DNA of 52,412 nucleotides from assembly GCA_902806065.1 (NCBI GenBank), contig CADCVE010000009.1, positions 1 through 52,412 on the forward strand, read 5' to 3'. The notes under the pieces are model-generated. The model searched no databases, was not told where the DNA came from, and worked only from the letters and a program-made list of their open reading frames with translations. Below are positions 5,882-35,903 of this stretch, one piece after another. A program made the position numbers and the translations under genes. This DNA comes from an uncultured Rubrobacteraceae bacterium (GTDB taxonomy: Bacteria > Actinomycetota > Rubrobacteria > Rubrobacterales > Rubrobacteraceae). Position 1 is the first letter of the stretch. Every line of letters begins with the position of its first letter.

Positions 5882-7612
5882 ATGAGCGAGAGAGTTGCGA
5901 GAGACGGAAGAGAACGTTACCTGGTTACATCGGCGCTGCCTTATGCCAACGGGCCGCTGCACATCGGGCATATGGCGGGGGCTTATCTGCCGGCGGATGT
6001 GTATGTGCGGTACCTCAGGATGCGCGGCGAGGACGTGGTGTTCGTTGGGGGGACTGATGAGCACGGCGTTCCGATCACGCTGACCGCCGAGCGCGAGGGC
6101 AAGGAGCCCCAGGAGGTCGTGGACTACTGGTACGCTCACATGAAGGAGACTTTTAGCCGCTTCGGCATCAGCTTCGACAACTTCTCGCGTACCTCTACAC
6201 CGCTGCACGCGAGGAATACTCAGATCTTCTACGAGAAGCTCAAAGAGGGCGGGTACATCTCCGAGGCCGAGAGCAAGCAGATGTACAGTCCGACCGAGGG
6301 GCGTTTCCTGCCGGATCGCTACGTCGAGGGGACGTGTCCGGTGTGCGGCTATAAGGAGGCTCGGGGCGACCAGTGTGACAACTGCGGGAGTTGGTATGAA
6401 GCTTATGAGCTTATAGAGCCGCATTCCAAGATTACGGGCGGCCCCGTGGAGGTGCGCGAGACGACGCACCTGTATCTGGACCTGCCGAAGTTCTCCGATC
6501 GTCTCCAGGAGTGGGTCGGGCGGCAGGATCATTGGCGCGACTCGGTGAGGAACTTCGTGCTCGGCATGATCGGCGGTGGTTTGGAGCGGCGTCCGATCAC
6601 CCGCGATATAACCTGGGGCGTGCCGATACCCGAGCCCGGTTTCGAGGACAAGCGCTTCTACGTGTGGTTCGACGCGCCGATAGGCTACGTTTCCTCGACG
6701 ATGGAGTGGGCGGAGAACGCCGCCGATCCGGATCGCTGGCGGGCATACTGGCAGGAGCCGGAGACGAAGCTCATCCACTTTATCGGCAAGGACAACACCG
6801 TCTTCCACGCCGTGGTGTGGCCCGCCATGCTCATGGGCGCCAGCGAGAGCGGCGAGGAACCCTTCGTACTACCCCACGACGTACTCGCCAACGAGTTCAT
6901 GAACCTGGAGGTGGTCGTAAACGGTGAGCGGCGGCCGATGCAGATGTCCACCAGCCGCAACCTCGCAGTTTGGCTGCACGAGGCACTCGACGACTTCCCG
7001 GCGGACCTGCTGCGGTTCTATCTCGCCTCCATCCTGCCGGAGACAGCGGACGTGAACTTCTCGTGGCGTGAGCTGCAGGAGCGGGTGAACTCCGACCTGA
7101 TCGGCACCCTAGGAAACTACGTAAACCGCACCCTATCCTTTCTGGAACGCTACTTCGACGGCGAAGCCCTACGTCCCGAAGAGATATCCGCGGACGCCAA
7201 GGAAGTCTTCGCGGACTTCAAAGAGATCGAGGCTCGTTACGAGGCACGCATGCTCGCCGGGCGCCCGAGAGACGCTCTGGGCGAGCTACTGGCAATGGGC
7301 CGGCGGGCGAACCGTTTCTTCGACGCCGAAGCGCCGTGGAAGAGCCGCAAGGAGAACCCGGAGGCGGCCCGGGCCACGCTCTACGCTTGCTCGGTCTTGC
7401 TCGGCTCCATCGCATACCATGCCGCCCCCTACGTCCCGGAGGCCGTCGAGCGCCTCGAAAAGTTCTTCGGCGGTACTATCGCAAGAGTCTCGGACCTGGA
7501 GAAGCTGCCCGATGCCTACCGCGCTAACAACGCCAAACCCCTCTTCAGGCGGGTCGAGGATTCCGAGGTCGAAGCGGCTGAGAGGAGGCTTTCAGCTGCG
7601 GCGGAGGGTTAG
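5882..7612 (+). CDS. metG: Methionyl-tRNA synthetase
   Basis: 576 residues of a class I aminoacyl-tRNA synthetase that charges tRNA-Met. The HIGH signature is at residues 27-30. A single zinc knuckle has Cys 152, 155, 165 and 168 (CPVCG and CDNCG). The KMSKS-equivalent loop is at 354-358 and reads QMSTS. The helical anticodon-binding domain follows (LLRFYLASILPETADVNFSW, then LGNYVNRTL). There is no C-terminal EMAP/Trbp111-type tRNA-binding domain, so the protein is at the short end for the family. The ATG is the natural start just before the Rossmann core. The upstream region contains an inverted repeat pair rather than a T-box. Confidence 0.96.
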   Translation: MSERVARDGRERYLVTSALPYANGPLHIGHMAGAYLPADVYVRYLRMRGEDVVFVGGTDEHGVPITLTAEREGKEPQEVVDYWYAHMKETFSRFGISFDNFSRTSTPLHARNTQIFYEKLKEGGYISEAESKQMYSPTEGRFLPDRYVEGTCPVCGYKEARGDQCDNCGSWYEAYELIEPHSKITGGPVEVRETTHLYLDLPKFSDRLQEWVGRQDHWRDSVRNFVLGMIGGGLERRPITRDITWGVPIPEPGFEDKRFYVWFDAPIGYVSSTMEWAENAADPDRWRAYWQEPETKLIHFIGKDNTVFHAVVWPAMLMGASESGEEPFVLPHDVLANEFMNLEVVVNGERRPMQMSTSRNLAVWLHEALDDFPADLLRFYLASILPETADVNFSWRELQERVNSDLIGTLGNYVNRTLSFLERYFDGEALRPEEISADAKEVFADFKEIEARYEARMLAGRPRDALGELLAMGRRANRFFDAEAPWKSRKENPEAARATLYACSVLLGSIAYHAAPYVPEAVERLEKFFGGTIARVSDLEKLPDAYRANNAKPLFRRVEDSEVEAAERRLSAAAEG

Positions 7613-7627
7613 AGAGCCTTTGGCGGT

Positions 7628-7996
7628 CTACCTGCCCGTCTCGACCTCGTAGCCCTTCTCCCGCCAGGCGTTTACGCCGCCGTCCATGTTAGCGACGTTC
7701 GTATAACCCATCTCCTTCAGGGACTTCGCCGCGAGGGCGCCACGGCCGCCGACGGCGCAGTGAACGATTATGCGCTCGTCCTTGTCCGGCAGCTCATCGG
7801 CGGCCTTGTACTCCAGTAGGCCGCGTGGGATCGGCTTCGCGCCCGGTATGTGCCCCTCATCCCACTCGTTGGGTTCCCGCACGTCCACCACGATGACGCT
7901 CTCGCCGGAGTCTAGCAAGCCGTGCACCGCCTCGACGTCCGTCTGCTCGGTCTCGCTCTTTGCCTCGGCCACCATCTCCTGGTAACTCTTCGCCAC
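7628..7996 (-). CDS. Rhodanese-like sulfurtransferase, single domain
   Basis: 122 residues. Residues 20-120 form one rhodanese fold: VIVVDVREPNEWDEGHIPGA near 34-53 and the active-site loop HCAVGGRG with catalytic Cys80, which would carry the persulfide. No signal peptide or membrane segment is present, so it is cytoplasmic. Single-domain rhodaneses move sulfur to acceptors such as thiols or cyanide; the physiological partner cannot be told from the neighbours. A purine-rich ribosome site (GGAGGGAG) precedes the ATG. It converges on metG with 15 bases between stops. Confidence 0.9.
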   Translation of the reverse strand: MAKSYQEMVAEAKSETEQTDVEAVHGLLDSGESVIVVDVREPNEWDEGHIPGAKPIPRGLLEYKAADELPDKDERIIVHCAVGGRGALAAKSLKEMGYTNVANMDGGVNAWREKGYEVETGR

Positions 7997-8056
7997 TTCT
8001 CTCCCTCCTTCGTACTTTCCGGGACGAATACTAACCGAACGGGATGTTCCCGGCCT

Positions 8057-8356
8057 TCAACTCCCCCGCGCCAGTTGGCCGAGGGAGAGTGTTACGAGCT
8101 TGCGCGTCACGATTATGACTGCCGCGGTCGTTACCGTTGCCCACGTAGGATTGAGCATGAGATTCAACAGTCCGGCCCCGATAAAGAACTCCAGCCCCAG
8201 GGACATGTGATCCAGTATCCATCGGGGTACGCGAGGGCCGGGTCCGAAACGCACGGCCTCCACAACAGCGCGCGCGACGCCGACAAAGACCGCCACGCCT
8301 CCCACGAACAATAGAGACGTCCTCAAGACATCCAACCCGGCGTAGTACAGGTTCAT
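8057..8356 (-). CDS. DUF1622 membrane protein, second of a pair
   Basis: 99 residues with three hydrophobic segments (about 8-30, 50-68 and 72-92) and the DUF1622 pattern LEFFIGAGLLNLMLNPTW followed by VIIVTRKLVTLSL. Its ATG overlaps the stop of the upstream paralogue (8353-8736) as ATGA, so the two are translationally coupled and may form a hetero-oligomer. The family is an inner-membrane protein of unknown function. Confidence 0.75.
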   Translation of the reverse strand: MNLYYAGLDVLRTSLLFVGGVAVFVGVARAVVEAVRFGPGPRVPRWILDHMSLGLEFFIGAGLLNLMLNPTWATVTTAAVIIVTRKLVTLSLGQLARGS

Positions 8357-8736
8357 TCGTCTCTCCCGCTAGAAGCACTGCCGGAGGCACCGCGCCCGGA
8401 GTCCAATGAGGAGGCTTGCTCGCGTTCGAGTTCCTTCTGGGGGAAGTAGTTGAGGACCGTTCGGATGACCGCGATGGCCGCGAGCAACTGCACCTCCTGA
8501 AAAGTCGGGGCGACCGCGGTAGCGAGGATGTCCGAAGCGAGTTGGAACTCCAGCCCCAGAGCCAGAAACCGCCCGAGGTGCAGCCGGATATCAGAGTTCG
8601 TGTACTTCCTCAGACCCAGCAGGGAGAGTACGTACCGGTACACCGCCGAGGCCGCCCCAATCCCTATGAATGCGGCGCCAACGGCCTCCACCGCGAGCCG
8701 TAGATAACCGACCGTGACGACCAGTAACTCCTCCAC
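8353..8736 (-). CDS. DUF1622 membrane protein, first of a pair
   Basis: 127 residues, with three membrane helices in the first 100 residues and a polar, serine- and arginine-rich tail. The segment LGLEFQLASDILATAVAPTF followed by AAIAVIRTVLNYF matches DUF1622, where the second part usually reads as a conserved arginine in a helix. It is a paralogue of the gene that follows, which it overlaps by four bases. The function of the family is unknown. Confidence 0.78.
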   Translation of the reverse strand: MEELLVVTVGYLRLAVEAVGAAFIGIGAASAVYRYVLSLLGLRKYTNSDIRLHLGRFLALGLEFQLASDILATAVAPTFQEVQLLAAIAVIRTVLNYFPQKELEREQASSLDSGRGASGSASSGRDE

Positions 8737-8786
8737 GGCCTGTATGGTACCCGAAGAGCGAAGCCCCTGGCCCTCCGTCCTCTACA

Positions 8787-9587
8787 TCAGTCGTCGGTCT
8801 CGCCCTCGAAGATAGCGAACACCGCGCCCTGAGGGTCTTGTAACACCGAGATCCGGCCGGCCCCGATGTCGAGCGGTCCGACCAACATCTCACCGCCCAG
8901 CCCACGCACCCCGGCGACCACGTCGGTATCCGGGAGAGCGGTGAAGTAGGTGAGCCAGTAGGATGGCGCGTCACCGTGTTGCTCCGTCGACGGCTCTGCC
9001 ATCGGCATGATCCCGCCGTTGCTGGAACCGGCGTTCTTGATCGTCACGTAGACCAGCTCCCCTTCTTGCTCGATGGGCTCCATCTCCCAGCCGAAGAGCC
9101 CGGAGTAGAAAGCGGCGGCTTTCTTGGGATCGCGACTCTGAAGCTCGTTCCAGGTCATGCAACCGGGATCGTTAACCCGTCGCGCCCCGATATGCCTCTC
9201 CGGTTGCCAGGCCGCCAGCACAGCACCCGCCGGGTCCTGGATGATCGCCATGCGGCCCGCGTCCATGACGTCGAATGCCTCACCGAATACCGTGCCGCCC
9301 AGCTCGACAGCCCTGGACGCGGTCGCGTCCGCGTCCTCGACGCTTACATAGGAGAACCAGTGGGGTGGAATACCCATCTCGCGACGTTCGTCTTCCAACT
9401 CATAGAGGGCGCAAACATCGTCGCCGTCCAGGCGCAGCATGGTGTAGGTGCCCGCTTCGCCGGCCGGCATATCCTCTGACTCCCAGCCGAACAGCTCACT
9501 ATAGAAAGCCTTGGCGCCCGCCGGGTCCGTCGTCGCCAGGTCCGCCCAGCAGAAAGTCCCCGGCTCGTAACGCTCCCTCTTACCCAT
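8787..9587 (-). CDS. VOC-family protein with two glyoxalase-like domains
   Basis: 266 residues made of two similar halves. Each begins with a segment like CWADLATTDPAGAKAFYSELFGWE (near residue 13) or MTWNELQSRDPKKAAAFYSGLFGWE (near 143) and ends with a DPAGAVLAAWQ or DPQGAVFAIFE strand. This is the arrangement of the CFP30B-type actinobacterial VOC proteins. VOC proteins bind a metal and act as glyoxalases, dioxygenases or resistance proteins; the substrate here is unknown. The ATG is preceded by AAAGGGG at good spacing. No operon partner is close. Confidence 0.85.
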   Translation of the reverse strand: MGKRERYEPGTFCWADLATTDPAGAKAFYSELFGWESEDMPAGEAGTYTMLRLDGDDVCALYELEDERREMGIPPHWFSYVSVEDADATASRAVELGGTVFGEAFDVMDAGRMAIIQDPAGAVLAAWQPERHIGARRVNDPGCMTWNELQSRDPKKAAAFYSGLFGWEMEPIEQEGELVYVTIKNAGSSNGGIMPMAEPSTEQHGDAPSYWLTYFTALPDTDVVAGVRGLGGEMLVGPLDIGAGRISVLQDPQGAVFAIFEGETDD

Positions 9588-9849
9588 CCACTGCCCCTTT
9601 CCTCACTACCTCCAAACAGCCAAAAGGCCATACCGGAAGTCTACAAAGACCCTCTCGTTCCCCAAGTAGCAAAGGGTCGCAGAGGGAAGATTTCGTCTGC
9701 CGCCCGGGGAGAACCAGGGTAACCTCTCGATGTTTTCGCGGAAGCCGGTAAGGGCCGCGTAAGGATCGTCGTGTAACCTTACGGGGCAGGCAGAGTCAAG
9801 ACGCCTCGATGCGCGAGCAGACATCAGAACATTGGGAGGAACTTCATTT

Positions 9850-11292
9850 ATGGCCTCACGGTATGACTTGATCGTTGTCGGCGGCGGGACCGCGGGGTTG
9901 GTCTCGGCCGCCGGAGCGGCGTCTCTGGGCGCGAAGGTTGCCCTCGTGGAGCGTGACAAGCTCGGCGGCGACTGCCTCCACACCGGCTGCGTCCCGACCA
10001 AGACGCTCGTCAAGAGCGCCCGGGTCGCGCACCTCATAAACCACTCCGAGGAGTACGGCGTCAAGACCTCCGGCTACGAGGTGGACTTCCCGGCCGTGAT
10101 GGACCGGATGGCCCGTGTAATACGAACCGCCGGTGAGCAAGACTCCCCGGATCGTTTTCGGGAGTTGGGTGTTGACGTCTTTCTCGATGAGGCTCAATTC
10201 ACCTCCCCCGATGAAGTCTCGGTGGATGGCAGGCGTCTGGCATTCCGGAGCGCTATCATTGCCACCGGCTCCCACTCTATAGTTCCTCCCATAGACGGAC
10301 TGGAAGACGTCGGCTATCTCACCCACGTCGAGGCTCTGCGGCTGCGGCGACTACCCTCCTCCATAATTATCCTGGGCTCAGGTCCTATCGGATGCGAGTT
10401 TGCCCAGATCTTCGCCCGCTTCGGCTCGAAGGTCACCTTGATCGACACCGTTCCCCTACCCCTCCCGAAGGAGGACCCCGAAGTCGGCGAGGTTCTGAGA
10501 GACGTCCTGATGGCCGACGGCGTGACCTTCCGCGGCGGGTACAAAGCCGGGGAGGCTCGAACCGAGGGTAGCGAGAAGGTTCTCGTAGCCCACAACGAGC
10601 AGGGAGAGAAGATAGAAGTCAGGGGCGAAGAGATTCTGGTTGCCGCCGGACGCGCCCCCACCGCCGGGAGCCTGGCACTAGAAACCGCGGGCGTGGAGGT
10701 GCAGAAAAAGGGCCTGAAGGTAGACGAGAACCTCCGTACCACCGCCCCGAACATCTACGCCGCCGGAGACATAACCGGCAAGTACCTCTTCACCCACGTC
10801 GCCGAATACCAGGCCCGGGCAGCGTTGCGCAACGCCCTCTTCCCCGTAAAGACGAAGGCCAACCACCGCGTCGTCCCCTGGACCACCTTTACGGACCCGG
10901 AGGTAGCCCGTGTGGGCCTCACCGAGGAGCAGGCCCGCCGGGAGTACGACTACGTCCGGGTCTACCGTCACCCGTTCACTGGGGTAGACCGGGCCATTAC
11001 TGACGGAGAGGCGAAAGGGTTCGTCAAGGTAGTGACCGGCAGGCGGGGCAAAATTCTGGGCGGACACATTGTCGGGCCGGACGCGGGGAACCTGATCCAC
11101 GAGATAGTCCTCGCGATGCAGGAGAACATCCCTATCGGGACCTTGTCTACGACTATTCACGTCTATCCGACGCTAGCTCAGGCCAATCAGCGCGTCGCGG
11201 ATAATTACTACCGGGAGACACTCTTTACAGACCGCAACCAGAAGATAATGAAGGGCTTCTTCGGGCTGCGGCGCAGGTTCGGCGGACGTTAA
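9850..11292 (+). CDS. FAD-dependent pyridine nucleotide-disulfide oxidoreductase (mercuric-reductase/LPD-like)
   Basis: 480 residues from the ATG at 9850, chosen because GGGAGGA ends nine bases upstream; an earlier TTG would lie before this site. The N-terminal FAD Rossmann motif is VVGGGTAGLVSA (residues 9-20). The redox-active pair is C42 and C47 in GGDCLHTGCVPTK. The NAD(P)H motif LGSGPIGCEFAQ follows near 176, then YAAGDITG near 305, and the dimerisation domain with HVYPTLAQ near 437. There is no N-terminal metal-binding domain and no C-terminal vicinal Cys pair, so true mercuric reductase activity is unlikely. The next gene encodes a TVP38 membrane protein, a frequent partner. Confidence 0.9.
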   Translation: MASRYDLIVVGGGTAGLVSAAGAASLGAKVALVERDKLGGDCLHTGCVPTKTLVKSARVAHLINHSEEYGVKTSGYEVDFPAVMDRMARVIRTAGEQDSPDRFRELGVDVFLDEAQFTSPDEVSVDGRRLAFRSAIIATGSHSIVPPIDGLEDVGYLTHVEALRLRRLPSSIIILGSGPIGCEFAQIFARFGSKVTLIDTVPLPLPKEDPEVGEVLRDVLMADGVTFRGGYKAGEARTEGSEKVLVAHNEQGEKIEVRGEEILVAAGRAPTAGSLALETAGVEVQKKGLKVDENLRTTAPNIYAAGDITGKYLFTHVAEYQARAALRNALFPVKTKANHRVVPWTTFTDPEVARVGLTEEQARREYDYVRVYRHPFTGVDRAITDGEAKGFVKVVTGRRGKILGGHIVGPDAGNLIHEIVLAMQENIPIGTLSTTIHVYPTLAQANQRVADNYYRETLFTDRNQKIMKGFFGLRRRFGGR

Positions 11293-11331
11293 GCTCTTCG
11301 TAAGGGAACAGCAAGAGGCACGTAAGGTCGG

Positions 11332-11343
11332 TACGGTACCGTA
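11332..11343. promoter_or_regulatory. 12-bp perfect palindrome before the TVP38 gene
   Basis: TACGGTACCGTA reads identically on both strands and stands 46 bases before the TVP38-family start codon. A dimeric regulator could bind here. No regulator gene is adjacent and no second copy was seen, so this is only a candidate. Confidence 0.3.
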
Positions 11344-11389
11344 GCATGGCTAGAGTAGAAGAACTACGCCAACGAACCTGGAGGCGAGC

Positions 11390-12106
11390 ATGGCCGAAGA
11401 AGCTGGAGAGGGAGAAGCCAAAAAGCCCTCACAGAGAAAGAAGACCATAGGCAAGGCCCTCGGCCTAATTCTGGCTCTGTTAGCCATCGTCGTGACTGCC
11501 TACGTCACCGGGCTGACGAGCTATGTAAGCCTGGACAACCTCGGCATGCTGCGGGGTTGGATCGACGGTTTCGGGGTGCTTGCTCCTATCGTCTTTATCG
11601 TCGTCTACGCCGTTGCGGTCGTGGCCTTCCTGCCCGCCACGCCTCTAACCCTTCTTGCCGGTTTGGTGTTCGGAGCGGTATGGGGCACTCTGTGGGCCTG
11701 GATCGGGGCCACGCTGGGGGCGACCCTGGCCTTTCTGGTAGGGAGATACGCGGCCCGCGGGCTGGTGGATTCCTGGAAGGCGGACAATGAGCGCGTCAGG
11801 AAGCTCGACGAAGAGGTCGAGAAACACGGCTGGAGGATGTTGCTTATCACCAGGCTCGTGCCCGTATTCCCCTTCAGCCTGCAGAATTACGTGTATGGCC
11901 TAACAAAGATCGGTCTGGGTACTTACGTGCTCCTCACCGCAGTGTGCATAGTACCGGGGGCGGCCGTGTACACCTTCGCGGGAGGCTCCCTGGCGACGGC
12001 CCAGGAGAACATTACCCAGACCTTTGTGTACCTGGGGATAGCCGCGGTGCTCTTCGTGTTGGTCTCCTTCGTTCCTGCCTGGATCCGAAAGAGAAATCAG
12101 AGGTAG
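11390..12106 (+). CDS. TVP38/TMEM64 (DedA-like, VTT domain) membrane protein
   Basis: 238 residues. After a charged N-terminal 20 residues come about six hydrophobic segments. The VTT-domain signatures are visible: FLPATPLTLLAGLVFGAVWG near residue 84, GATLAFLVGRYAARG near 112, and LITRLVPVFPFSLQNYVYGL near 155, containing the conserved Arg and FxxxxNY. Such proteins are half-scramblase-like membrane transporters. The neighbour upstream is an FAD disulfide oxidoreductase in the same direction with a 97-base gap. The ATG has GGAGGCGAGC before it. Confidence 0.88.
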   Translation: MAEEAGEGEAKKPSQRKKTIGKALGLILALLAIVVTAYVTGLTSYVSLDNLGMLRGWIDGFGVLAPIVFIVVYAVAVVAFLPATPLTLLAGLVFGAVWGTLWAWIGATLGATLAFLVGRYAARGLVDSWKADNERVRKLDEEVEKHGWRMLLITRLVPVFPFSLQNYVYGLTKIGLGTYVLLTAVCIVPGAAVYTFAGGSLATAQENITQTFVYLGIAAVLFVLVSFVPAWIRKRNQR

Positions 12107-27491: not shown

Positions 27492-27669
27492 AGAATTTCC
27501 CTCCTTCTACTTACAGAGTCTTTACACGGCCTGCACCGCTTCCCACCCGGGGAAGTTACCCGTAGTTTACACAGTTGAAACGCGAATTTCTCTATTTGTT
27601 TAATTTTTTTTAACAAAAGCTTCTTATTTTCGTCTCGGAGACCGGGAGTTTGTTGGAGTACGAGGTAGG

Positions 27670-27754
27670 CGGGGGCGGAAGGATTCGAACCTTCGGGCGT
27701 TTTACCGCCTCTGGTTTTCAAGACCAGCGCATTCGTCCGCTCTGCCACGCCCCC
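27670..27754 (-). tRNA. tRNA-Ser(TGA)
   Basis: 85 bases on the minus strand, class II with a long variable arm. Acceptor GGGGGCG pairs with CGCCCCC, discriminator G. The anticodon stem CTGGT/ACCAG surrounds CTTGAAA (anticodon TGA). The variable arm is AGGCGGTAAAACGCC, and the T-arm has GAAGG-TTCGAAT-CCTTC. CCA is not encoded. A TATAAT -10 (27771-27766 on the minus strand) lies 11 bases upstream. Confidence 0.95.
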
Positions 27755-27765
27755 GGTGGATCTTG

Positions 27766-27771
27766 ATTATA
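27766..27771 (-). promoter_or_regulatory. -10 element of tRNA-Ser
   Basis: A perfect TATAAT on the minus strand, ending 11 bases before the mature 5' end of tRNA-Ser. No good -35 was seen. Confidence 0.5.
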
Positions 27772-27887
27772 CGACTTCGTTCTACAACATCGTTCGTACC
27801 GGGCGTCGTTCGGGCATCTCTCTCGTACCTCGGCCGGATCTGCCTCACTAGTTGCTCGAACTTCGGAGTTCGCTTCGAGGTGCTTCG

Positions 27888-28916
27888 TTATCGCGCCTTC
27901 TGATCCTGGTACTGTACTACCCTATCGTTAGGTGGTCTGTGCCCCAGGAACTCCTCCATGGCGGCGCGCCCGGACTGAAACAACTCCATCGCCCGCTCCT
28001 TAGAGAGATCGAACTCCGTCGTACGCACGCCCAGGGTGTTGATAGCGATCGTGCGTTGGAAGTCGTGTTCTTCTATGTACAGCCGGTCGTGGGCAGCCAT
28101 CATGGTGTCCACCAGACTCCTGAGGTAGTCAATGACCGACAATACCCCGCCGCGCGGTCTCTCCTGTGAAAGCTGGCTGCCTATCGGCAACTTCGGCTTC
28201 TCCACCAGCTTCAACCCGAAGGTGGGCCACTGCGGCTCTTCTGCGTCGAAGAGCCAGACCGGGAAGTTCGATAGCATCCCTCCATCCACGATAAGGTGTT
28301 CCCTGCCAGTCTGCGCGTTGGTGAGCGTCACCGGCTCGAAGAAGATAGGTATGCTCATGCTCATACGAACCGCCAGGGCCACGTTGAGGTCGTCCGGGTC
28401 GTCGATACCAAGCCTGGCCGCGTCCCGGGGCAGGACCAAAAGGCGCCGTTCGGTTACGTCCGAGGCGATCACCTGCGCCTTGTAGCGGTACTTCGGCTCG
28501 GCGTCTTCGCGACGCACCAAATCCCCGAACGTCCGGACCCCCTTGGCCTCCAACAGGTCGCGCATCCACGCCAGGAAAGCCTCGCCCTCGTAGACGCCTA
28601 AGTCCTTCAAGACGCTCAAGGTCCTATCTGCCAGGGGTATTCGATCCTCCCAAGACTCGTCCTTGAAGTGGTCGTAATCCAGCTCCCCAATGATCCTACG
28701 TAGCTCCGTGGCTGTGTAACCTGCGGCGACCAGCGCGGCCACGATGGCCCCGGCCGAGGCCCCGGCCATGTTCTGAGGCTCGTAGCCCCGCTCCTCGAGG
28801 ACGGAGAAGGCTCCCACCAGGGCTATACCCTTCACTCCCCCGCCCTCGAACACCAGATCCACGTACTTCTCCCGGTTCTCCCGGTTCCCGCTCTCCCACA
28901 CTTCCCGCTCCTCCAC
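27888..28916 (-). CDS. Patatin-like phospholipase
   Basis: 342 residues from a GTG with AAGGAG eight bases upstream; that site overlaps the stop of the preceding gene. The oxyanion loop is LVFEGGGVKGIALVGA near residue 23, and the nucleophile elbow is MAGASAGAIVAALV (G-A-S-A-G) near 55. The Asp of the dyad is in LIVDGGMLSNFPVWLFD near 215. Patatin enzymes release fatty acids from phospholipids by a Ser-Asp dyad. No signal peptide is present, so it acts from the cytoplasmic side or is released on lysis. It is the last gene of the operon with an endolysin-like enzyme and a membrane protein. Confidence 0.9.
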   Translation of the reverse strand: MEEREVWESGNRENREKYVDLVFEGGGVKGIALVGAFSVLEERGYEPQNMAGASAGAIVAALVAAGYTATELRRIIGELDYDHFKDESWEDRIPLADRTLSVLKDLGVYEGEAFLAWMRDLLEAKGVRTFGDLVRREDAEPKYRYKAQVIASDVTERRLLVLPRDAARLGIDDPDDLNVALAVRMSMSIPIFFEPVTLTNAQTGREHLIVDGGMLSNFPVWLFDAEEPQWPTFGLKLVEKPKLPIGSQLSQERPRGGVLSVIDYLRSLVDTMMAAHDRLYIEEHDFQRTIAINTLGVRTTEFDLSKERAMELFQSGRAAMEEFLGHRPPNDRVVQYQDQKAR

Positions 28917-28928
28917 CTCGCACGCTCC

Positions 28929-29777
28929 TTAATTCCCGCCAGAACCTTGCCTTCCGGAGCCCCCAGAGCTCGCCCTTCCGGAGATGAACCCTGCTAGAAC
29001 GCCTGCAACGGTCGTAACCACCGTGAGCAGTATCTGGATCTGTTCTGGGTTCCAGAAAGCGGCCGCGAAAAGCGCGAGGGCGGATAGTACGAAGACAAGG
29101 GCAAAGGACCAAACGATTATCTGCCATATCCGGTCGGCTATGCCCTGCGTCGGAAGGACGCGCTCAGCAAGATCCTCCCGGTCTTCGAATGAAAGGCTCC
29201 TTATAGCTTGGGCGGCAACATCCTTTTTGGCCTCGGGGGAAAGGGCTATCATCGCCTCGGCGGCAACGTCCTTCTTGGTCTCGGTAGGAAGACTCGCCAT
29301 CGCTTCGGTAGCAACGTCCTTTTTGGCTTCGGGAGGAAGAGCCGCCATCGCTTCGGTGGCAACGCCCTTTTTGGCTTCGGGAGAGAGCGCCCGTACTGCT
29401 TCGTTGGTAACGTATCTCTTGGCTTCGGGAGGGAGGGTTCGCACCGCTTCGGCGGCGACGCCCTTCTTTACGTCGGGAGGAAGGTTTCGCAGCGCGTCGG
29501 TGATGAGACCCTTCTCGTCCTCGACAGCATTAGGGGCAAAGGTGTGCGGCGCCGCTTCGGTAGCAGCATCTCTCTCGCCCCCGGAACCATCGAGAAGGGC
29601 CTCCGGCGGTGCGGGTGGTGCAGGCCGCTCTTTTTGCTGTCGCGGCTGATCGTGTCGAGGCATGCCTTGCGGCAGCTCTACTTTACGAGTGTTTCCCTCT
29701 TTGGGCAGGTCGGCAGGTTGCCCTGCGGGGCGGTCCATGGCGATCGGCGGTCCGGTCACTGCTCCCTGTTTCGTCAT
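28929..29777 (-). CDS. Tandem 16-residue-repeat protein with C-terminal two-helix membrane hairpin
   Basis: 282 residues from the ATG at 29777. The N-terminal 70 residues are proline- and charge-rich. From about residue 85 to 205 there are seven or eight copies of a 16-residue repeat with consensus like LPPEAKKDVATEAMAA. It is helical in pattern and would form a rod or coiled array. Residues 215-270 contain two membrane helices (IIVWSFALVFVLSALALFAAA and ILLTVVTTVAGVLAGFISG) with a short NPEQIQ turn, then a glycine/serine tail. The topology recalls small holins or anchors. It starts 19 bases after the endolysin-like gene and is followed after 12 bases by a phospholipase. No named family recognised. 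Confidence 0.75.
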   Translation of the reverse strand: MTKQGAVTGPPIAMDRPAGQPADLPKEGNTRKVELPQGMPRHDQPRQQKERPAPPAPPEALLDGSGGERDAATEAAPHTFAPNAVEDEKGLITDALRNLPPDVKKGVAAEAVRTLPPEAKRYVTNEAVRALSPEAKKGVATEAMAALPPEAKKDVATEAMASLPTETKKDVAAEAMIALSPEAKKDVAAQAIRSLSFEDREDLAERVLPTQGIADRIWQIIVWSFALVFVLSALALFAAAFWNPEQIQILLTVVTTVAGVLAGFISGRASSGGSGRQGSGGN

Positions 29778-29796
29778 CTGTGCGCGGCCTCCTCTC

Positions 29797-31041
29797 CTAT
29801 GGGCGGTGAAACGTAATGTGCAGGTGGTACCAGTGGCCGGCATCTGACCAGGGGTCGGTGTCCCAGTACTCCTGCCAGCCCACTCCGTCTGTCCAGATGT
29901 AGCCCTCGTAGATGCACCAGTTGATCCAGGGCGCGTTCTGGTCGTTGAAGATCCAGTTGAGGATCTCTTTGCCGATTGTCAAGTCCAGGGAGGCGGCGCG
30001 CCCCGCGTAGTCCCAGAAGTCCACGGAGACGCTGTCCATCCCAAACCCCGGCGGGTGATCAACGTACGTGTTCGCCCACACACTACCCGGGTGCATCCCC
30101 AAGATGCGCCTGATGTAGTTGTCTACCGACTGCTCCCACGTATACCGGTCGGGGTGCAGATCGACGTAACTTCCGTCCCCTAACCATCCCACCGGCTGCC
30201 ACGCCTCGGGCCACGGCTCCGTGTACTTCGGCTCGGCCAAGCTAACCGCCGGCTCCGGAGCGACGACCTCCTCTTTTTTGGACGGGACGTGGAGGCCGCC
30301 TTTCTTCAGCCAGACACGTTGCGTCTCGAACGCCTCGTCGGGAGCTTCTTCTAACGCAACGTACTTCTTGCGGTCCTGGGTCATGAGCCAATTCTCTCCC
30401 ACGACCACGAGCCGAAGCACGGGCCAGCCGTCGAGCAACTCTTCCGAACTCTCCGCCTCGCCGGGTGGCGCCTCTTGTACCTCGTCGGGCTCCGGCACTA
30501 CCACGTCGTCGGGCAAGACGTTCAGCGCCCTCCACCAGTAGTGCTCCCGGTCGGCGTCGGGGCCTCCGCGCACCCCTAGGATCGTCGAGCGGAAGTCGCC
30601 GGCCTCCGCGTATCCGTTGAGGTTCCCCCAAGAAGATCCGTAGCGCCAGTACCAGCCCGCGCTGTACCAGGGATTGGGCTGCTTGGTGAGAAGCAGAGGG
30701 TCTGCCTCAAAATCCACACCCAACGCTTCTCCCACCTTGCGGTGGTTGAGACGTCCGGTCGTCTGGATGTAGCCGTGGCCCTTGTACCTTGGGCCATCGC
30801 CTTGCTGCGTGTTCCCTAGATCCTCGCGCCACTCGTAGTCCCAACCGTCGGCGATCTCCTCAACGTAGTAGAGCTCACCTGACTCTTTGGCCACGTTCAT
30901 TAGGAACGCGGCCAGTCTATTCTTTGTCGTGATCTCGTAGTCGTGGCAGGTCTTGAGGAAGTACTGCCACTCCCTGTCCAGCCCGTTCGCCCGGGCGTTG
31001 GGCATGATCTCCACTACGTGATCTATGGTCAGCTTGGTCAT
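29797..31041 (-). CDS. GH19 (chitinase/endolysin-type) hydrolase with extra C-terminal domain
   Basis: 414 residues from the ATG at 31041, fixed by AGGAGG seven bases upstream. The GH19 domain (about 10-185) shows FLMNVAKESGELYYVEEI with the catalytic-acid Glu, then GPRYKGHGYIQTTGRLNH, the substrate loop typical of phage and bacterial GH19 lysozyme-like enzymes. A linker leads to a C-terminal domain (about 265-414) rich in Trp and His, ending WYHLHITFH, possibly a second wall- or substrate-binding domain. There is no signal peptide, as in phage endolysins that need a holin. It starts the tight operon with the repeat membrane protein and the phospholipase, below a SARP-type operator. Confidence 0.82.
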   Translation of the reverse strand: MTKLTIDHVVEIMPNARANGLDREWQYFLKTCHDYEITTKNRLAAFLMNVAKESGELYYVEEIADGWDYEWREDLGNTQQGDGPRYKGHGYIQTTGRLNHRKVGEALGVDFEADPLLLTKQPNPWYSAGWYWRYGSSWGNLNGYAEAGDFRSTILGVRGGPDADREHYWWRALNVLPDDVVVPEPDEVQEAPPGEAESSEELLDGWPVLRLVVVGENWLMTQDRKKYVALEEAPDEAFETQRVWLKKGGLHVPSKKEEVVAPEPAVSLAEPKYTEPWPEAWQPVGWLGDGSYVDLHPDRYTWEQSVDNYIRRILGMHPGSVWANTYVDHPPGFGMDSVSVDFWDYAGRAASLDLTIGKEILNWIFNDQNAPWINWCIYEGYIWTDGVGWQEYWDTDPWSDAGHWYHLHITFHRP

Positions 31042-31143
31042 AGAGTTCCTCCTCTCGGATGTTATCGTCTGCACGCTACTCTCCTTCTTCGGGGACTATC
31101 AAAAGCCCGAAAGCAACGTCGTAGGAACCCGACGCCTGTTCTT

Positions 31144-31362
31144 CTAACAGTAGGCCCTATTGGCCGTGCGCCCACGGCCAATAGGGCCTGCCCGGAGTAG
31201 GAACTCGGATGATTCACGACCCTGGCCACGTCTACATTGTCTCGTCGAACGCTGCGTCGCCTGCCTTTGCCATGTACCCTGTATCCAACGCAACCGGGCT
31301 AGGGCTACGCTGGACTTCATGGGGAGCTGGGTGTCCTCGAACTGAACTCTATAGACGAGCAT
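31144..31362 (-). CDS. Possible small protein, first gene after the SARP operator
   Basis: 72 residues from an ATG with a textbook AAGGAG six bases upstream. It starts MLVYRVQFEDTQLPMK, is arginine- and glutamine-rich and has no recognised domain. The last 15 or so residues are encoded by the perfect palindrome at 31152-31189, so the true end or purpose may be a leader that ends in a hairpin. It lies between the ATTCAT repeats and the endolysin-like gene. Confidence rests on the ribosome site and position. Confidence 0.4.
   Translation of the reverse strand: MLVYRVQFEDTQLPMKSSVALARLRWIQGTWQRQATQRSTRQCRRGQGRESSEFLLRAGPIGRGRTANRAYC
31152..31189. repeat. Perfect 17-bp hairpin
   Basis: AGGCCCTATTGGCCGTG (31152-31168) is the exact reverse complement of 31173-31189, with a CGCC loop. 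No T-run follows on either strand, so it is not a standard terminator. It lies about 110 bases before the endolysin-like start codon in the transcript and could be an attenuator, an mRNA processing site or a mobile-element palindrome. Confidence 0.8.
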
Positions 31363-31431
31363 AAGTGACTCCTTTCTTCCTGGTCTCTCCGCTGCTCGGG
31401 AGCCCAGCTACCTCAATCCTTACTTTTTATT

Positions 31432-31437
31432 AGAATA
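31432..31437 (-). promoter_or_regulatory. -10 element next to the SARP repeats
   Basis: TATTCT on the minus strand, seven bases past the last ATTCAT repeat; the overlapping TAATAA is an alternative. In SARP-activated promoters the binding repeats stand about eight bases from the -10 and replace the -35. Transcription would start near 31424 and run to the endolysin-like operon. Confidence 0.5.
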
Positions 31438-31444
31438 GGTGGCG

Positions 31445-31483
31445 ATGAATCTCCAATGAATTCTGAATGAATTCCTGATGAAT
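31445..31483 (-). promoter_or_regulatory. SARP-type operator: four direct repeats at 11-bp period
   Basis: ATGAAT occurs on the plus strand at 31445, 31456, 31467 and 31478, exactly 11 bases apart; on the minus strand the repeat is ATTCAT. SARP-family activators bind heptameric direct repeats spaced 11 or 22 bp just upstream of a -10. The array stands 25 bases past the stop of a SARP gene and directly before a -10-like hexamer. The repeat array is seen directly; its recognition by this SARP is inference. Confidence 0.75.
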
Positions 31484-31507
31484 CTAAGGATTTTCGAGGC
31501 TCTGTCT

Positions 31508-32884
31508 TTAGCGGGAGCCGCCGTCCTTCAGGATACTCGCGTAGAGGGTCCGAGTCTTGAGGGAGGGCATCATATCGTACTCGCTCCTGAGCACCCGCTC
31601 GCACAACCTGTACTGGCGTAGCGCCCGGGCCCGCTGGCCGAGGCGGACGTAGCACTCCATCAGCAGGCGGTGAGTGTACTCGTCGCAGCGATCTCTCTCC
31701 AGGATCTGGTAGTAGGTCTTGACGCTCTCCCAAGGCTGTCCGACCTCTGTGTAGCGAACGGCCAGCCTGCGTAACGAGTCGACGTACGCGTCGAGCAGCC
31801 TTTCGCGTTCGATCATGGTCCACTCTTCGTACAGGTCCTCGGTCAGGTAGTCCCCCCGGTACAGTTCCGCGGCCTTCTCGTACTGCGAAACCGCCTCCGA
31901 CACCCGACCGGCGTCCTCCAGCCGGTGCCCCTCCTCGTAGCGGGAATAGAACTCTTCGACATCCGTGCTCAGCAAAATGCGCGGCGACAGCCGATATCCT
32001 CCCCCCTGGAACAGGATGGCCTCCGAGGCGGGTAAGGAAGGCAAGCAGCCGCCCAGTAGCTTGCGCAGGGCGTAGACGGCGGAGTTTAACGACCAGCGAG
32101 CCCTCTTCGGGTCGGACTCCGGCCACAGCCAGCCCATGAGGTGATCCTGGGATACCGGACGTTCACATCGACGGGCCAGCAGGTACTTGAGGATGGCTAG
32201 TGCCCTGGCGTTGCGCCCCAAACACACGGCCTCCCCACCGTCCCGCAGAAGCTCGAAGCGTCCAAAGAATCGTACCCACAGACAGGGTCCAGCGGCAACG
32301 GTACCCGTCGCTATTGCTCCTGCCGGCGTCGAGGCTCGTCCCACCATTGCGCCCGTAACCTCGTCCGTCATGTAATCCGGCGATGCATGGCATGCAACGA
32401 GCGACTCGGCCTCCGCACAGCCGACGAGCGCGGCTCTGGCGTGGTTTACCTCCTCGTAGCTGAGACGGGACAGGTTCGGGCTCAATGTCCGTAGGGCGTC
32501 TCGTACTCTCTCTCCGACCGACTGCTCACGGCTTAAAGTGGCGCACAACTGCGCTGCTACCATAGCCGCCTCGGCCGACAAACGGTCGGACGAGCCTTCG
32601 GCCGAGAGCAGCATTCGGCCAAAGCACTCGGCGGCTCGCCCGTACTCACGCCGCTCGACAAGATCGTGCCCCCTCCTCCAGGCCGCAGAACCGGACGGAA
32701 GATGATCTCTACTCTGCCGCCGCACAGCCGAAATGTTCCCCGGTGGCTCTACTATCGTCGCCCGATCTTCGAGGGCGAGCGTAGCCCATAAAGAGACATC
32801 GATAGACATGTCCCGGTCCCCCAAAGGACCGCCCTCTCTGTTTGACCGCTGAGCTAAGTGATCTCGTTCGACGTTGAAATCCAT
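31508..32884 (-). CDS. AfsR/SARP-family transcriptional regulator (wHTH + BTAD)
   Basis: 458 residues. An N-terminal alpha-helical region of about 200 residues (AAWRRGHDLVERREYGRAAECF looks TPR-like) precedes an OmpR-type winged helix (VRFFGRFELLRDGGEAVCLGR to LGGCLPSL, about 205-300). The bacterial transcriptional activation domain follows, with TPR-like helices (EEFYSRYEEGHRLEDAGRVSEAV, LRRLAVRYTEVGQPWESVKTYYQ, ECYVRLGQRARALRQYRLCERVL). SARPs activate target operons, often secondary metabolism, by binding 11-bp-spaced repeats. Such repeats follow this gene directly. The N-terminal extension is not typical of small SARPs and may sense a signal. Confidence 0.9.
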   Translation of the reverse strand: MDFNVERDHLAQRSNREGGPLGDRDMSIDVSLWATLALEDRATIVEPPGNISAVRRQSRDHLPSGSAAWRRGHDLVERREYGRAAECFGRMLLSAEGSSDRLSAEAAMVAAQLCATLSREQSVGERVRDALRTLSPNLSRLSYEEVNHARAALVGCAEAESLVACHASPDYMTDEVTGAMVGRASTPAGAIATGTVAAGPCLWVRFFGRFELLRDGGEAVCLGRNARALAILKYLLARRCERPVSQDHLMGWLWPESDPKRARWSLNSAVYALRKLLGGCLPSLPASEAILFQGGGYRLSPRILLSTDVEEFYSRYEEGHRLEDAGRVSEAVSQYEKAAELYRGDYLTEDLYEEWTMIERERLLDAYVDSLRRLAVRYTEVGQPWESVKTYYQILERDRCDEYTHRLLMECYVRLGQRARALRQYRLCERVLRSEYDMMPSLKTRTLYASILKDGGSR

Positions 32885-33222
32885 TTTAGAGGCTCCTGCG
32901 TAGTCTCTCCCACCTACCGGTACGAGGACGCGTCTTCTCCCTACTTCCCAGGGAAGTTCCCTTCAACGTTCCACCATCGTCTATCGGTTCGGCTACCTCG
33001 TCTACCTTACTTCGACCTTATCCCCCAACACCCACCATGTAAAGTACCAAATGCTATTTCGAGAGCTAAACGTTACAAAATGTGTGCGCAAAATGTATAA
33101 AAGGTCGTATATCGTTTGCGACTTTTGGATGATGCCTACGAGTCCTTAGTTGTACGAATATACATCTATAGAAACACGGGTTGCTTCAAGTCCAGGCGGG
33201 ACCAAATTGGGAGGTTGATCTG
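32885..33222. other. AT-rich divergent intergenic region (SARP gene / ubiA gene)
   Basis: 338 bases with visibly lower GC than the flanks, containing the divergent promoters. CAAAATGT occurs twice at 33076-33083 and 33089-33096, 13 bases apart, followed at once by a -10-like TATAAAAG. These may be binding sites for the response regulator encoded in the adjacent plus-strand operon. Nothing else was recognised. Confidence 0.4.
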
Positions 33223-34116
33223 GTGACTCACTTGACTTCGGTGATCGGGTGGTGCTTTGGGGTACTTTACCGGTGTTTCTTGGAGGCGAGGCCGGCGGTT
33301 CAAGGCATCTTCCTGTTGCGCTTTCTGGCCGGTGCTTCGTTTGCCGGCTCTCTTTTTGCAGGAGGCGTGGTGAACTTCCCGCTGTGGGGAGGAGCGGCAC
33401 TTTGGGTCTGCGTGACGTTATCCGTCTATATACTCAACGGAGTTATGGACGTCGAGGAAGATCAGATCAACGGCTCTTCGAGGCCGGTGGCTAGAGGGAA
33501 GTTGAAGGTTGTGCAGGCCGCTAGCGTGGCCGGTGGTCTCGCAGTACTAAGCGTTGTGGGCAGCCTCGCGTTGGGAAGCCTGATGATGTTGAGCGTCGTA
33601 GCGGCGCTCGCTCTAGGATGGCTCTACTCGGGTCCGCCCTTCTACCTCAAGCGCTGGCCCGCCGGGTTGGCGGTGGTGGCGATACTCGCAGCCCTCATAA
33701 CATACAATGCCGGTTATGCAGCCAACGGGGGCGGGTACGGTATGCGCTCCTTGTTGATATTCACCGCGGTAATGGCACTGTGGATGGGTTTTGTGGGCCA
33801 GACGAAGGATCTCTCCGACATCGAAGGAGACAAGCAGGCCGGGCGAAGGAGTGGGCCGGTAGTTTGGGGCGAAGGCACCGCCCGGCTCGTTTTCTCGGGG
33901 GTGGCTCTCTGCCTCGGCGGGGGATACGTCCTGTCGGCCGCGCTTTTCGCGGAGAGCCTGCTAATCCCGGCCTTTATACTGGCGTCTGGGGCCGTGGTCC
34001 TAGCGGTGGTTACGCTCGGTCCCTGGAGCAGGGGCGAAAAGTCGAGACGTAGGAGACCATACCAGGTGTTCATGCTCACCCAGTACGGCGCCAACCTGAC
34101 TGTCTTGACCTTGTAA
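33223..34116 (+). CDS. UbiA-family prenyltransferase
   Basis: 297 residues from the GTG at 33223, chosen for GGGAGG eight bases upstream; the frame is open to 33181. Eight to nine hydrophobic helices. The two Asp-rich motifs that bind Mg-diphosphate are NGVMDVEEDQINGSSRPVARG near residue 80 (given here as two blocks, NGVMDVEEDQ and INGSSRPVARG) and KDLSDIEGDKQAGRRS near 200. Members transfer a polyprenyl group to an aromatic or other acceptor (ubiquinone, menaquinone, chlorophyll, tocopherol, carotenoid tails). The acceptor here is unknown. It heads an operon with a two-component pair. Confidence 0.88.
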   Translation: MTHLTSVIGWCFGVLYRCFLEARPAVQGIFLLRFLAGASFAGSLFAGGVVNFPLWGGAALWVCVTLSVYILNGVMDVEEDQINGSSRPVARGKLKVVQAASVAGGLAVLSVVGSLALGSLMMLSVVAALALGWLYSGPPFYLKRWPAGLAVVAILAALITYNAGYAANGGGYGMRSLLIFTAVMALWMGFVGQTKDLSDIEGDKQAGRRSGPVVWGEGTARLVFSGVALCLGGGYVLSAALFAESLLIPAFILASGAVVLAVVTLGPWSRGEKSRRRRPYQVFMLTQYGANLTVLTL

Positions 34117-34146
34117 CAAGCAGAAATATGAGAGGGTATTGAGGTA

Positions 34147-35241
34147 GTGCTCGAAGACGAAATTCTCCCCGGCCACCTGAACGAAGCCGCCAAAGTCCTC
34201 GAGGCGCGTTTCGAGGACTTTTTCTTGGCCTACGAGAAACGGCTGCTCGCTATAAATAGCCCACTGATAGCTGAAGCGGAGACACGCGAGCAGCTTAGGG
34301 AGCAGGCGCGCTCCATACTTCAGGAGGTCGCGGCGGACTTGCGCGGACGGGAAGCACCGACCGATGCGCCGCAAGATCACCTTTCCGAAGCTATTGGAGT
34401 CTCCAGGGCCCGCGGAAACGTGCATGCCAGCGAGTCCCTTCGAGCCGTGGTAGCCCTCTCCGAGGCAGCACTGCTGGTGGTGTCGGCTCATCTGCCTTCG
34501 TCTTCAAACCTGAGGAACGATATAGTAGCGGTAGCTTTGGCAGTCCAGAAGAGCATCATGGAACATGTAACGAAAGCAGGCGTAGCGTACGCCAACTACC
34601 TGCTCCAGAAAGCCCACGAGTCCCACGCCGACGAGCGGCGCAGGATCAGCCGAGAGCTGCATGATAGGGTCGCCCACTCCATCATGGTGGCATTCCGTAG
34701 CCTGGAGATCTTTGAGATGTACAGGACCAAAGACCCTTTGAAGGCTCAGGTCAAGCTGGAGTTGGCCAAAGGCACAACACAAGAAGCTCTCCAGTTGACC
34801 AGGAGTCTATCGAGGGAACTGCGCGAGATGTCGGCGGAAGAAGGTCTGGAGGTGGCCCTGTCGGACCTTCTGAGCACTAGCGTTCCTCAGAGCATCCGGT
34901 CCAGAGTCTCGGTCGCGGGTGACGAGACCCTCATCCCGCCCCAGGTGCGCGACGAACTGTTCTTGATCATTCGCAAGGGTATAAGGAACGCCGTGACCCA
35001 CTCCGGAGCCGGCACGATGACCGTCGGCGTGAACGTAACCGAGAGCCACGTGAGAGCGGTCGTCGAGGACGATGGTAGGGGATTCGAACCCGGAGAGAGA
35101 GAACACCGTGACGGCGGCACGGGCCTTGCCTCCATGCAGGAGCGAACCTCGCTTCTGGGAGGCACCCTCAACCTGGCCTCCACCCCGGGTGAGGGTACTA
35201 GGATAGAGGTCTTCGTGCCGTTGCCGGGGAGCCGGCGTTGA
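34147..35241 (+). CDS. Soluble NarL-type sensor histidine kinase (HisKA_3)
   Basis: 364 residues from a GTG. The N-terminal 150 residues are helical with no membrane segment, possibly a cytoplasmic sensor. The dimerisation and phospho-acceptor domain is ADERRRISRELHDRVAHS, with the His followed by the conserved D, near residue 165. The HATPase part has FLIIRKGIRNAVTHSGAGT (N-box), VVEDDGRGFEPG and GGTGLASMQERTSLLGG. It overlaps the response-regulator gene by four bases, so the two are a cognate pair. Cytosolic kinases of this kind often sense redox or gas. Confidence 0.9.
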   Translation: MLEDEILPGHLNEAAKVLEARFEDFFLAYEKRLLAINSPLIAEAETREQLREQARSILQEVAADLRGREAPTDAPQDHLSEAIGVSRARGNVHASESLRAVVALSEAALLVVSAHLPSSSNLRNDIVAVALAVQKSIMEHVTKAGVAYANYLLQKAHESHADERRRISRELHDRVAHSIMVAFRSLEIFEMYRTKDPLKAQVKLELAKGTTQEALQLTRSLSRELREMSAEEGLEVALSDLLSTSVPQSIRSRVSVAGDETLIPPQVRDELFLIIRKGIRNAVTHSGAGTMTVGVNVTESHVRAVVEDDGRGFEPGEREHRDGGTGLASMQERTSLLGGTLNLASTPGEGTRIEVFVPLPGSRR

Positions 35242-35903
35242 AGAAGAGAGACGGCCACATCAAGGTGCTCCTTGTAGACGATCACGCCCTCTTCCGCGAG
35301 GGTGTGGTCGAAATTTTCGCCGTGGAGGACGGCATGAGGGTGGTCGGGGAGGCGGAGAACGGCGTGGATGCCATCGCACTCGCTCAGAGAGAGAAGCCGG
35401 ACGTGGTGCTGCTCGACGTAGAGATGCCCGTGATGGGCGCTGAAGGGGCCATAGAGGAAATATTGCGCGTCTCACTTTCCTCGAAGGTCCTCGTGCTCAC
35501 CATGTACGACGAGCCCCGTTTGGTTCGGAAACTTCTAAGGCTTGGAGCCCACGCGTACATAGTAAAGAACGCCACCCGTGAGGAGCTCGTCGCCGCGGTA
35601 CGCACCGTGCATAGGGTCGAGGATCGCGTCGTTCTGTCGGTGTCGCGTACCACGGCCGACAGGCTGGAGGGATCGGATAGGGGTACGCTCTCCGGTCGAG
35701 AGCTGGAAGTCCTATTGCTCACGGTAAGAGCCATGAGCAACAGTCAGATAGCCGCCTACCTCCACATCTCTGAAGGCACGGTCAAACGCCACCTCACCAA
35801 CATCTACGCGAAGCTGGGCGTCTCCTCCAGGGCCGACGCCGCCAAGAAGGCCCTCACGAGCGGGCTGATAACCTTTAGAGACCTATCCGAACCCGGCCGG
35901 TAG
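35238..35903 (+). CDS. NarL/FixJ-family response regulator
   Basis: 221 residues from a TTG that overlaps the kinase stop. The receiver domain has LLVDDHALFREGV, the phospho-acceptor Asp in VVLLDVEMPVMG, Thr in VLTMYDEPR and Lys in YIVKNATREEL. The C-terminal LuxR-type HTH is LSGRELEVLLLTVRAMSNSQIAAYLHISEGTVKRHLTNIYAKLGV in pattern (LSGRELEVLLL then SEGTVKRHLTNIYAKLGV). It is the partner of the upstream kinase and the last gene of the ubiA operon. Its targets are unknown. Confidence 0.92.
   Translation: MKKRDGHIKVLLVDDHALFREGVVEIFAVEDGMRVVGEAENGVDAIALAQREKPDVVLLDVEMPVMGAEGAIEEILRVSLSSKVLVLTMYDEPRLVRKLLRLGAHAYIVKNATREELVAAVRTVHRVEDRVVLSVSRTTADRLEGSDRGTLSGRELEVLLLTVRAMSNSQIAAYLHISEGTVKRHLTNIYAKLGVSSRADAAKKALTSGLITFRDLSEPGR

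What the first reader, a model, noticed from the sequence alone, without database searches (positions are those of the whole stretch)
31445..31483. SARP-type operator: four ATTCAT repeats at an exact 11-bp period directly after a SARP gene
Seen directly: ATGAAT at 31445, 31456, 31467 and 31478 on the plus strand. Known: SARP activators bind direct repeats 11 bp apart beside a -10 element. A TATTCT stands seven bases further. The SARP gene ends 25 bases before. Together these predict that this SARP activates the operon downstream, whose products are not a secondary-metabolite pathway but an endolysin-like enzyme, a membrane protein and a phospholipase. I do not know of a described SARP controlling such a set.
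Basis: partly seen in the sequence, partly recalled or inferred. Interest (0 to 1): 0.78.

Follow-up and report, generated by a model that had tools for sequence, protein, structure and literature searches.

The report
SARP-operated switch for attack-enzyme genes
The four short repeats are very probably the landing strip of the neighbouring SARP activator, and near-identical landing strips sit before dozens of genes for wall-, lipid-, oxidising and protein-cutting enzymes, and before phage-tail-like injection machines, in related bacteria, so a regulator type known from antibiotic making seems here to run a set of attack or lysis enzymes.

Summary
Confirmed: four ATTCAT units at an exact 11-bp period (minus strand, 31483-31445), 24 bp after the SARP stop; none expected by chance. 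The same box recurs: three more good arrays in this genome, about 75 in related Rubrobacteraceae. Aligned, they share a promoter: (A/G)TTCATCG units, then an extended -10 (TGnTannnT) at the AfsR-afsS spacing. Arrays track this SARP clade across 39 genomes (at least 2 arrays in 13/16 SARP-positive, 2/23 SARP-negative), not the adjacent response regulator or other BTAD proteins. The core is AfsR-like (TTCATCG), not a PHO box (GTTCACC). Downstream genes encode wall hydrolases, lipases, peroxidases, oxidases, proteases, Rhs, Hcp and DUF4157 proteins; all three contractile-sheath genes found among relatives sit behind an array. The endolysin/2-TM/patatin operon is conserved behind its array in one relative; in two others the endolysin-like and patatin genes each have their own. 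Best reading: a SARP activating an antagonism/lysis regulon; binding, activation and role are inferred. BTAD genes beside eCIS loci were already noted (Geller 2021), so: new variant of a known kind.

The parts
31445..31483 (-). Operator: four ATTCAT units, period 11 bp (minus-strand sense; 31478-31483, 31467-31472, 31456-31461, 31445-31450)
   Evidence: PWM score 43.7 against a null maximum of 6.0 in 580,764 positions and 4.5 elsewhere in the window
31429..31434 (-).
   Evidence: offset 16-21 from the last repeat, where 77 aligned sites show T(A/T)nnnT preceded by TG at 13-14; conserved in G007
31421..31423 (-). Predicted transcription start (about 31422)
   Evidence: inferred from the register of the afsS promoter, repeat unit -29..-19 and hexamer -12..-7 (PMC10936776)
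31508..32884 (-). SARP-type activator, 458 aa: N-terminal helical/TPR-like extension, OmpR-type winged helix (~200-300), BTAD (307-452)
   Evidence: Pfam BTAD 3.5e-23; AlphaFold model matches EmbR and the AfsR-afsS initiation complexes 8k60/8hvr, TM to target 0.78-0.80
31042..31422 (-). Leader between promoter and endolysin gene, containing the hairpin 31152-31189
   Evidence: hairpin not found in the G007 counterpart
31152..31189 (-). Perfect 17-bp inverted repeat, 4-nt loop, no U-tail; possible attenuator or terminator
   Evidence: leader folds at z = -6.05
29797..31041 (-). GH19 endolysin-like wall hydrolase, 414 aa, no signal peptide or TM segment seen
   Evidence: PHROG endolysin 5.7e-32; G007 counterpart is Pfam GH19; 43% (N) and 40% (C) identity to G007
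28929..29777 (-). Membrane protein with two C-terminal TM segments (longest ORF starts at 29843; likelier start at the internal ATG 29777); holin-like position
   Evidence: the G007 protein at the same position also has two TM segments
27888..28916 (-). Patatin-like phospholipase, 342 aa, catalytic motifs GGGVKG, GASAG and DGG present
   Evidence: Pfam Patatin 2.6e-34; orthologs 85% G007, 76-77% G062/G020, 75% G035, 60% G017
33181..35903 (+). Neighbours: UbiA prenyltransferase, histidine kinase, LuxR/GerE response regulator (divergent from the SARP)
   Evidence: same three genes beside the SARP in Rubrobacter marinus; the response regulator does not track the arrays

Best explanation
The array is the operator and upstream half of an activator-dependent promoter. 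The SARP encoded just upstream binds the ATTCAT(CG) repeats side by side, as AfsR does, takes the place of a -35 element, and recruits RNA polymerase to an extended -10. This starts transcription toward an endolysin / two-TM membrane protein / patatin operon. The same SARP controls, through the same box, other loci in this genome (haloperoxidase-like PAP2 protein, FAD oxidase, metalloprotease) and in relatives a wider set: wall hydrolases, lipases, peroxidases and oxidases, proteases, Rhs, Hcp and DUF4157 proteins, and contractile injection systems. Shown: the motif, its spacing, its distribution, co-occurrence with the SARP and the downstream genes. Inferred: that this SARP is the binder, that it activates, and that the regulon serves antagonism and/or self-lysis that releases enzymes mostly made without a recognisable N-terminal signal.
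For: Array far beyond chance. Three further good arrays in the same genome. 77 aligned sites show TG-n-T(A/T)nnnT at a fixed offset that was not part of the search pattern, equal to the afsS register. Unit (A/G)TTCATCGnn agrees with the published AfsR unit CGTT(T/C)ATCGNN. Arrays follow the SARP clade: at least 2 arrays in 13/16 SARP-positive vs 2/23 SARP-negative genomes, p = 6e-6, including contrasts within genera g1 and g12; genomes with only large, ~30%-identity BTAD proteins lack arrays. The adjacent response regulator does not track them. Array within about 3.3 kb of the SARP gene in 8 of 16 genomes. Operon order SARP-array-GH19-2TM-patatin kept in G007; in G035 and G062 the GH19-like and patatin genes are split and each has its own array. 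All 3 sheath genes among the 60 genomes searched are preceded by an array. Fold matches AfsR-DNA complexes.
Against: No binding or expression data. G020 and G060 have good arrays but no detected SARP ortholog (94% and 79% complete, each in 640 contigs). G017 has a SARP ortholog (52%) and a patatin ortholog but no arrays. In several other genomes the SARP contig carries no array. AfsR's base-contacting R92 is Ala/Gly here (my mapping). A strong hairpin in the leader could terminate transcription before the endolysin gene. The genomes are related, so the co-occurrence p-value is optimistic. The functional theme rests on a heuristic choice of the downstream gene; some targets (SSB, SnoaL-like, adenylate cyclase/TPR) do not fit it.
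Confidence: 0.82

Rival explanations
1. The array is a box for a different OmpR-type regulator, above all a PhoP-like phosphate regulator, which also binds 11-nt direct repeats; the SARP is only a neighbour.
For: Streptomyces PHO boxes are 11-nt direct repeats and overlap the AfsR box at afsS.
Against: Core is TTCATCG (T after TTCA in 99% of sites), not GTTCACC. No pst/pho gene among the characterised targets; the three PstS-like loci of this genome have no array (best score -0.1). Co-occurrence and adjacency are with the SARP clade.
Confidence: 0.06
2. The array promoter is real and SARP-bound, but its transcript ends at the 31152-31189 hairpin, so it makes only a short leader RNA or peptide; the endolysin operon has another promoter.
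For: Perfect 17-bp stem about 230 nt into the leader; leader folds at z = -6.05.
Against: No U-tail; the G007 counterpart has array-leader-GH19 without the hairpin; most other arrays lie 35-350 nt from the downstream gene; no sigma-70-like consensus promoter in 27500-33300.
Confidence: 0.12
3. The array is a neutral tandem repeat (slippage minisatellite) without function.
For: Units are identical in their six-base core here; G005 has longer runs.
Against: Spacers between units differ; the same box is dispersed over tens of unrelated loci; the -10 stands at fixed distance; distribution follows the SARP.
Confidence: 0.02
4. Regulator and box as proposed, but the regulon is a nutrient-scavenging or stress enzyme set, not antagonism or lysis.
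For: Many targets are generic hydrolases and oxidases; most genomes with arrays have no detectable sheath or tube.
Against: Only about 12 of 57 target ORFs show an N-terminal hydrophobic core by a crude test, odd for scavenging exoenzymes; endolysin-like hydrolases, Rhs, Hcp, DUF4157 and three injection-system operons are in the set.
Confidence: 0.3

Closest known systems
AfsR / afsS promoter of Streptomyces coelicolor
   [quoted passage not shown] winged helix plus BTAD activator; predicted fold matches 8k60/8hvr
   [quoted passage not shown] here a 458-aa SARP with an N-terminal helical extension and a regulon of lytic and oxidative enzymes
BTAD (PF03704) and GerE genes found next to eCIS loci (Geller et al. 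2021, PMC8213781)
   Same: BTAD regulator linked to contractile injection systems and DUF4157 proteins; histidine kinase plus GerE gene beside the regulator
   Different: There an association by gene neighbourhood only; here an operator sequence and a dispersed regulon, mostly in genomes without a detectable injection system
EmbR of Mycobacterium tuberculosis
   Same: SARP-like fold (best Foldseek and phmmer hit), non-antibiotic targets
   Different: Carries an FHA domain; known for arabinosyltransferase genes (own knowledge)
PhoP PHO box of Streptomyces
   Same: 11-nt direct repeats with a TTCA core
   Different: GTTCACC core, Pho regulon genes

Membership tests
SARP regulators | OmpR-type winged helix followed by BTAD | tested here: met
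   BTAD 3.5e-23, Trans_reg_C 3.7e-5 (just below its cut-off); fold match to AfsR and EmbR
SARP regulators | DNA-contact residues shared among SARPs (AfsR W74, T88, R94, K95 and others) | tested here: inconclusive
   By my mapping W254, R274 and K275 are kept and T88 is Ser268; R92 is Ala/Gly; no structure-based superposition of residues done
SARP operator (AfsR-like box) | direct repeats spaced 11 bp, last one just upstream of the -10, no good -35 | tested here: met
SARP operator (AfsR-like box) | bound by the cognate SARP and activated | not testable with these tools
   needs EMSA/footprint and in-vitro transcription
PHO box | GTTCACC repeats before Pho genes | tested here: not met
   TTCATCG core; no array at the three PstS-like loci
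eCIS (contractile injection system) in the window's own genome | sheath, gp19 tube and eCIS_core genes present | tested here: not met
   no sheath, tube or eCIS_core match in G000; in relatives G007, G032 and (sheath alone, contig end) G020 such genes lie behind the same box
Lysis cassette (endolysin plus holin-like protein) | endolysin and small membrane protein adjacent, lytic activity | tested here: inconclusive
   PHROG endolysin and 2-TM neighbour in window and G007; activity not testable here

The most novel reading that the evidence does not exclude
A single SARP is the master switch of a dispersed, family-wide antagonism programme in Rubrobacteraceae: self-lysis genes, contractile injection particles where present, and cytoplasmically made lytic and oxidative enzymes released or injected together, all wired by one AfsR-like box.
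Probability: 0.3. Interest if true: 0.8.

Novelty: new variant of a known kind. Interest (0 to 1): 0.62.

Why it matters
SARPs are known almost only as switches of antibiotic clusters in Streptomyces. Here the same promoter architecture is found in a deep-branching actinobacterial family, with a defined operator, and with targets that are enzymes and injection machines instead of small-molecule pathways. It turns a noted but unexplained BTAD-eCIS association into a concrete, testable promoter, and gives a sequence tag to find new effectors in poorly studied bacteria, including one with a complete genome from a named strain (Rubrobacter marinus SCSIO 52915).

Tried and rejected
C15:29744 in the own genome matches the pattern at 1 mismatch and has a TGCTTT -10-like stretch, but no sensible downstream gene; treated as unproven. 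Chloroflexi and other distant SARP relatives carry no such array. eCIS as the sole target: rejected, since most array-bearing genomes have no detectable sheath or tube. A domain shared by the GH19 proteins' C-termini as a cargo tag: shared clearly only by three of six candidates, not pursued. Divergent arrays in G017: none found. ORF starts were not resolved experimentally; the GH19 start is taken as the ATG at 31041 instead of the GTG at 31074. Single hits in G004, G006 and G019 score 5-14 on the matrix and are taken as chance.

Full report
Observation. The four ATGAAT (minus strand ATTCAT) words stand exactly as described, at 31445, 31456, 31467 and 31478. The full pattern occurs once in 52 kb and never in shuffled sequence, even at three mismatches. 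The SARP reading frame 31508-32884 (-) has a BTAD domain at 3.5e-23, and its stop lies 24 bases from the array.

The array is one of many. In the same 3.75-Mb genome three further loci carry the same kind of array with the same 3' extension ATTCAT-CG(C/T)C: C42, C95 and C14. In 39 genomes of the family (Rubrobacteraceae by the record titles, including Rubrobacter marinus SCSIO 52915 = G002) the pattern TTCATN5ATTCATCGCC at up to one mismatch gives about 80 hits, while the reversed control pattern gives 3.

Anatomy of the promoter. Aligning 77 terminal sites shows units (A/G)TTCATCGnn and, outside every letter used for the search, T(0.71)G(0.81)-n-T(0.75)(A/T)nnnT(0.69) at offsets 13-21 from the last repeat. 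That is an extended -10 with no -35. In the AfsR-afsS promoter the two repeats span -40..-30 and -29..-19 and the box ends just before the -10 (PMC10936776); the published AfsR unit is CGTT(T/C)ATCGNN (PMC10972967). Setting the first T of our repeat core to -27 puts the hexamer at -12..-7. In the window this is TCTAAT at 31434-31429 with a start near 31422. The relative G007 keeps ATTCATCGCC and TCTAAT but not TATTCT. A weight matrix of these sites scores the window array 43.7 (it was among the training sites); the best of 580,764 null positions scores 6.0.

Which protein binds. (a) The SARP orthologs form a clear group. Counting genomes with at least two arrays: 13 of 16 with the SARP, 2 of 23 without, Fisher p = 6e-6; counting at least one matrix-supported array (a sorting made after the fact), 15/16 against 2/23, p = 8e-8. 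The contrast holds inside genera g1 and g12, but the genomes are related and the p-values are optimistic. Three genomes added later were a blind test: G062 (arrays, SARP present) and G061 (no arrays, no ortholog) agreed; G060 (arrays, no ortholog found, 79% complete) did not. (b) Genomes holding only the large ~1000-aa BTAD proteins of ~30% identity have no arrays, and the response regulator beside the SARP does not follow the arrays. (c) An array lies within about 3.3 kb of the SARP gene in 8 of 16 genomes, often directly behind its stop codon. (d) In the PDB the model of the SARP matches EmbR and the AfsR-afsS initiation complexes best; the remaining hits are generic TPR proteins. (e) A PhoP-type reading is unlikely: the core is not GTTCACC and the PstS-like loci have no array.

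The downstream operon. It encodes a GH19 endolysin-like enzyme (PHROG endolysin), a protein with two C-terminal TM segments and a patatin phospholipase. In G007 the order SARP - array - GH19 - 2-TM protein - patatin is kept, with a second array and a small gene in between. In G035 and G062 the locus is rearranged: a GH19-like gene and the patatin gene diverge, and each has its own array (matrix scores 39.6 and 27.7; 38.7 and 28.0). The box follows the genes through rearrangement, which is the best comparative evidence that the window operon belongs to it. The patatin ortholog occurs in six genomes, all with the SARP or arrays; in G020 the contig ends before the promoter, and in G017 no array is found.

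The regulon. Genes placed first behind arrays (heuristic choice) include GH19, GH25, Amidase_2, Rv2525c-type and LysM wall proteins; patatin and GDSL lipases; vanadium chloroperoxidase/PAP2, animal-type haem peroxidase, Dyp, GMC, ALO, tyrosinase and copper amine oxidase; M28, astacin and M10 proteases; Exo_endo_phos; Rhs, Hcp and DUF4157 (eCIS_core) proteins. All three tail-sheath genes found in 60 genomes (G007, G020, G032) are directly behind an array, two of them followed by gp19 tube and T4-type baseplate genes and one by Pvc16 as well. By a crude test 12 of 57 target ORFs have an N-terminal hydrophobic core. I read this as an antagonism and/or lysis programme; this step is inference. The window's own genome has no detectable sheath, tube or eCIS_core gene.

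Known context. BTAD genes beside eCIS loci were listed by Geller et al. 2021 (PMC8213781), as were GerE regulators with a histidine kinase; both kinds of gene stand beside each other in this window. In the held library I found no paper that joins a SARP to control of a contractile injection system, or a SARP regulon to Rubrobacter (the few co-mentions were judged by title and abstract only). The library is open-access only.

Open points. The hairpin 31152-31189 could stop the array transcript; G007 lacks it. Two array-bearing genomes lack a detected SARP; one SARP-bearing genome lacks arrays. DNA binding, direction of regulation and the biological role need experiments.

Noticed in passing
31152-31189: Perfect 17-bp inverted repeat with a 4-nt loop in the leader between the array promoter and the endolysin gene, absent from the relative G007.
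   Followed up: partly
G005:C33 (L146), arrays near 254, 311 and 5196 counted on the minus strand: Two related HAD-M28 peptidase genes (75% identical) each stand behind longer ATTCATTCGGG arrays, one of them doubled, which suggests recent duplication of promoter plus gene.
   Followed up: no
L183 (G007:C52) 27-4383 and L184 (G032:C16) 5823-11612: Contractile injection operons (sheath, gp19 tube, T4-type baseplate; Pvc16 in G032) in Rubrobacteraceae directly behind the array.
   Followed up: partly
L189 (G000:C42) 568-1040: The array precedes a 41-aa truncated GH25-like reading frame, then an FG-GAP/M10 metalloprotease gene; the GH25 gene looks decayed.
   Followed up: no
L107 (G026) and L110 (G031): A single-stranded DNA-binding protein gene (SSB by inspection, 94% identical in the two genomes) sits behind an array, an odd member for an enzyme regulon.
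   Followed up: no
G007:C27:12602-13324: A second, partial SARP of the same clade near the response-regulator locus at a contig end; G007 seems to have two.
   Followed up: no
27670-27754: tRNA gene on the minus strand just downstream of the patatin gene.
   Followed up: no
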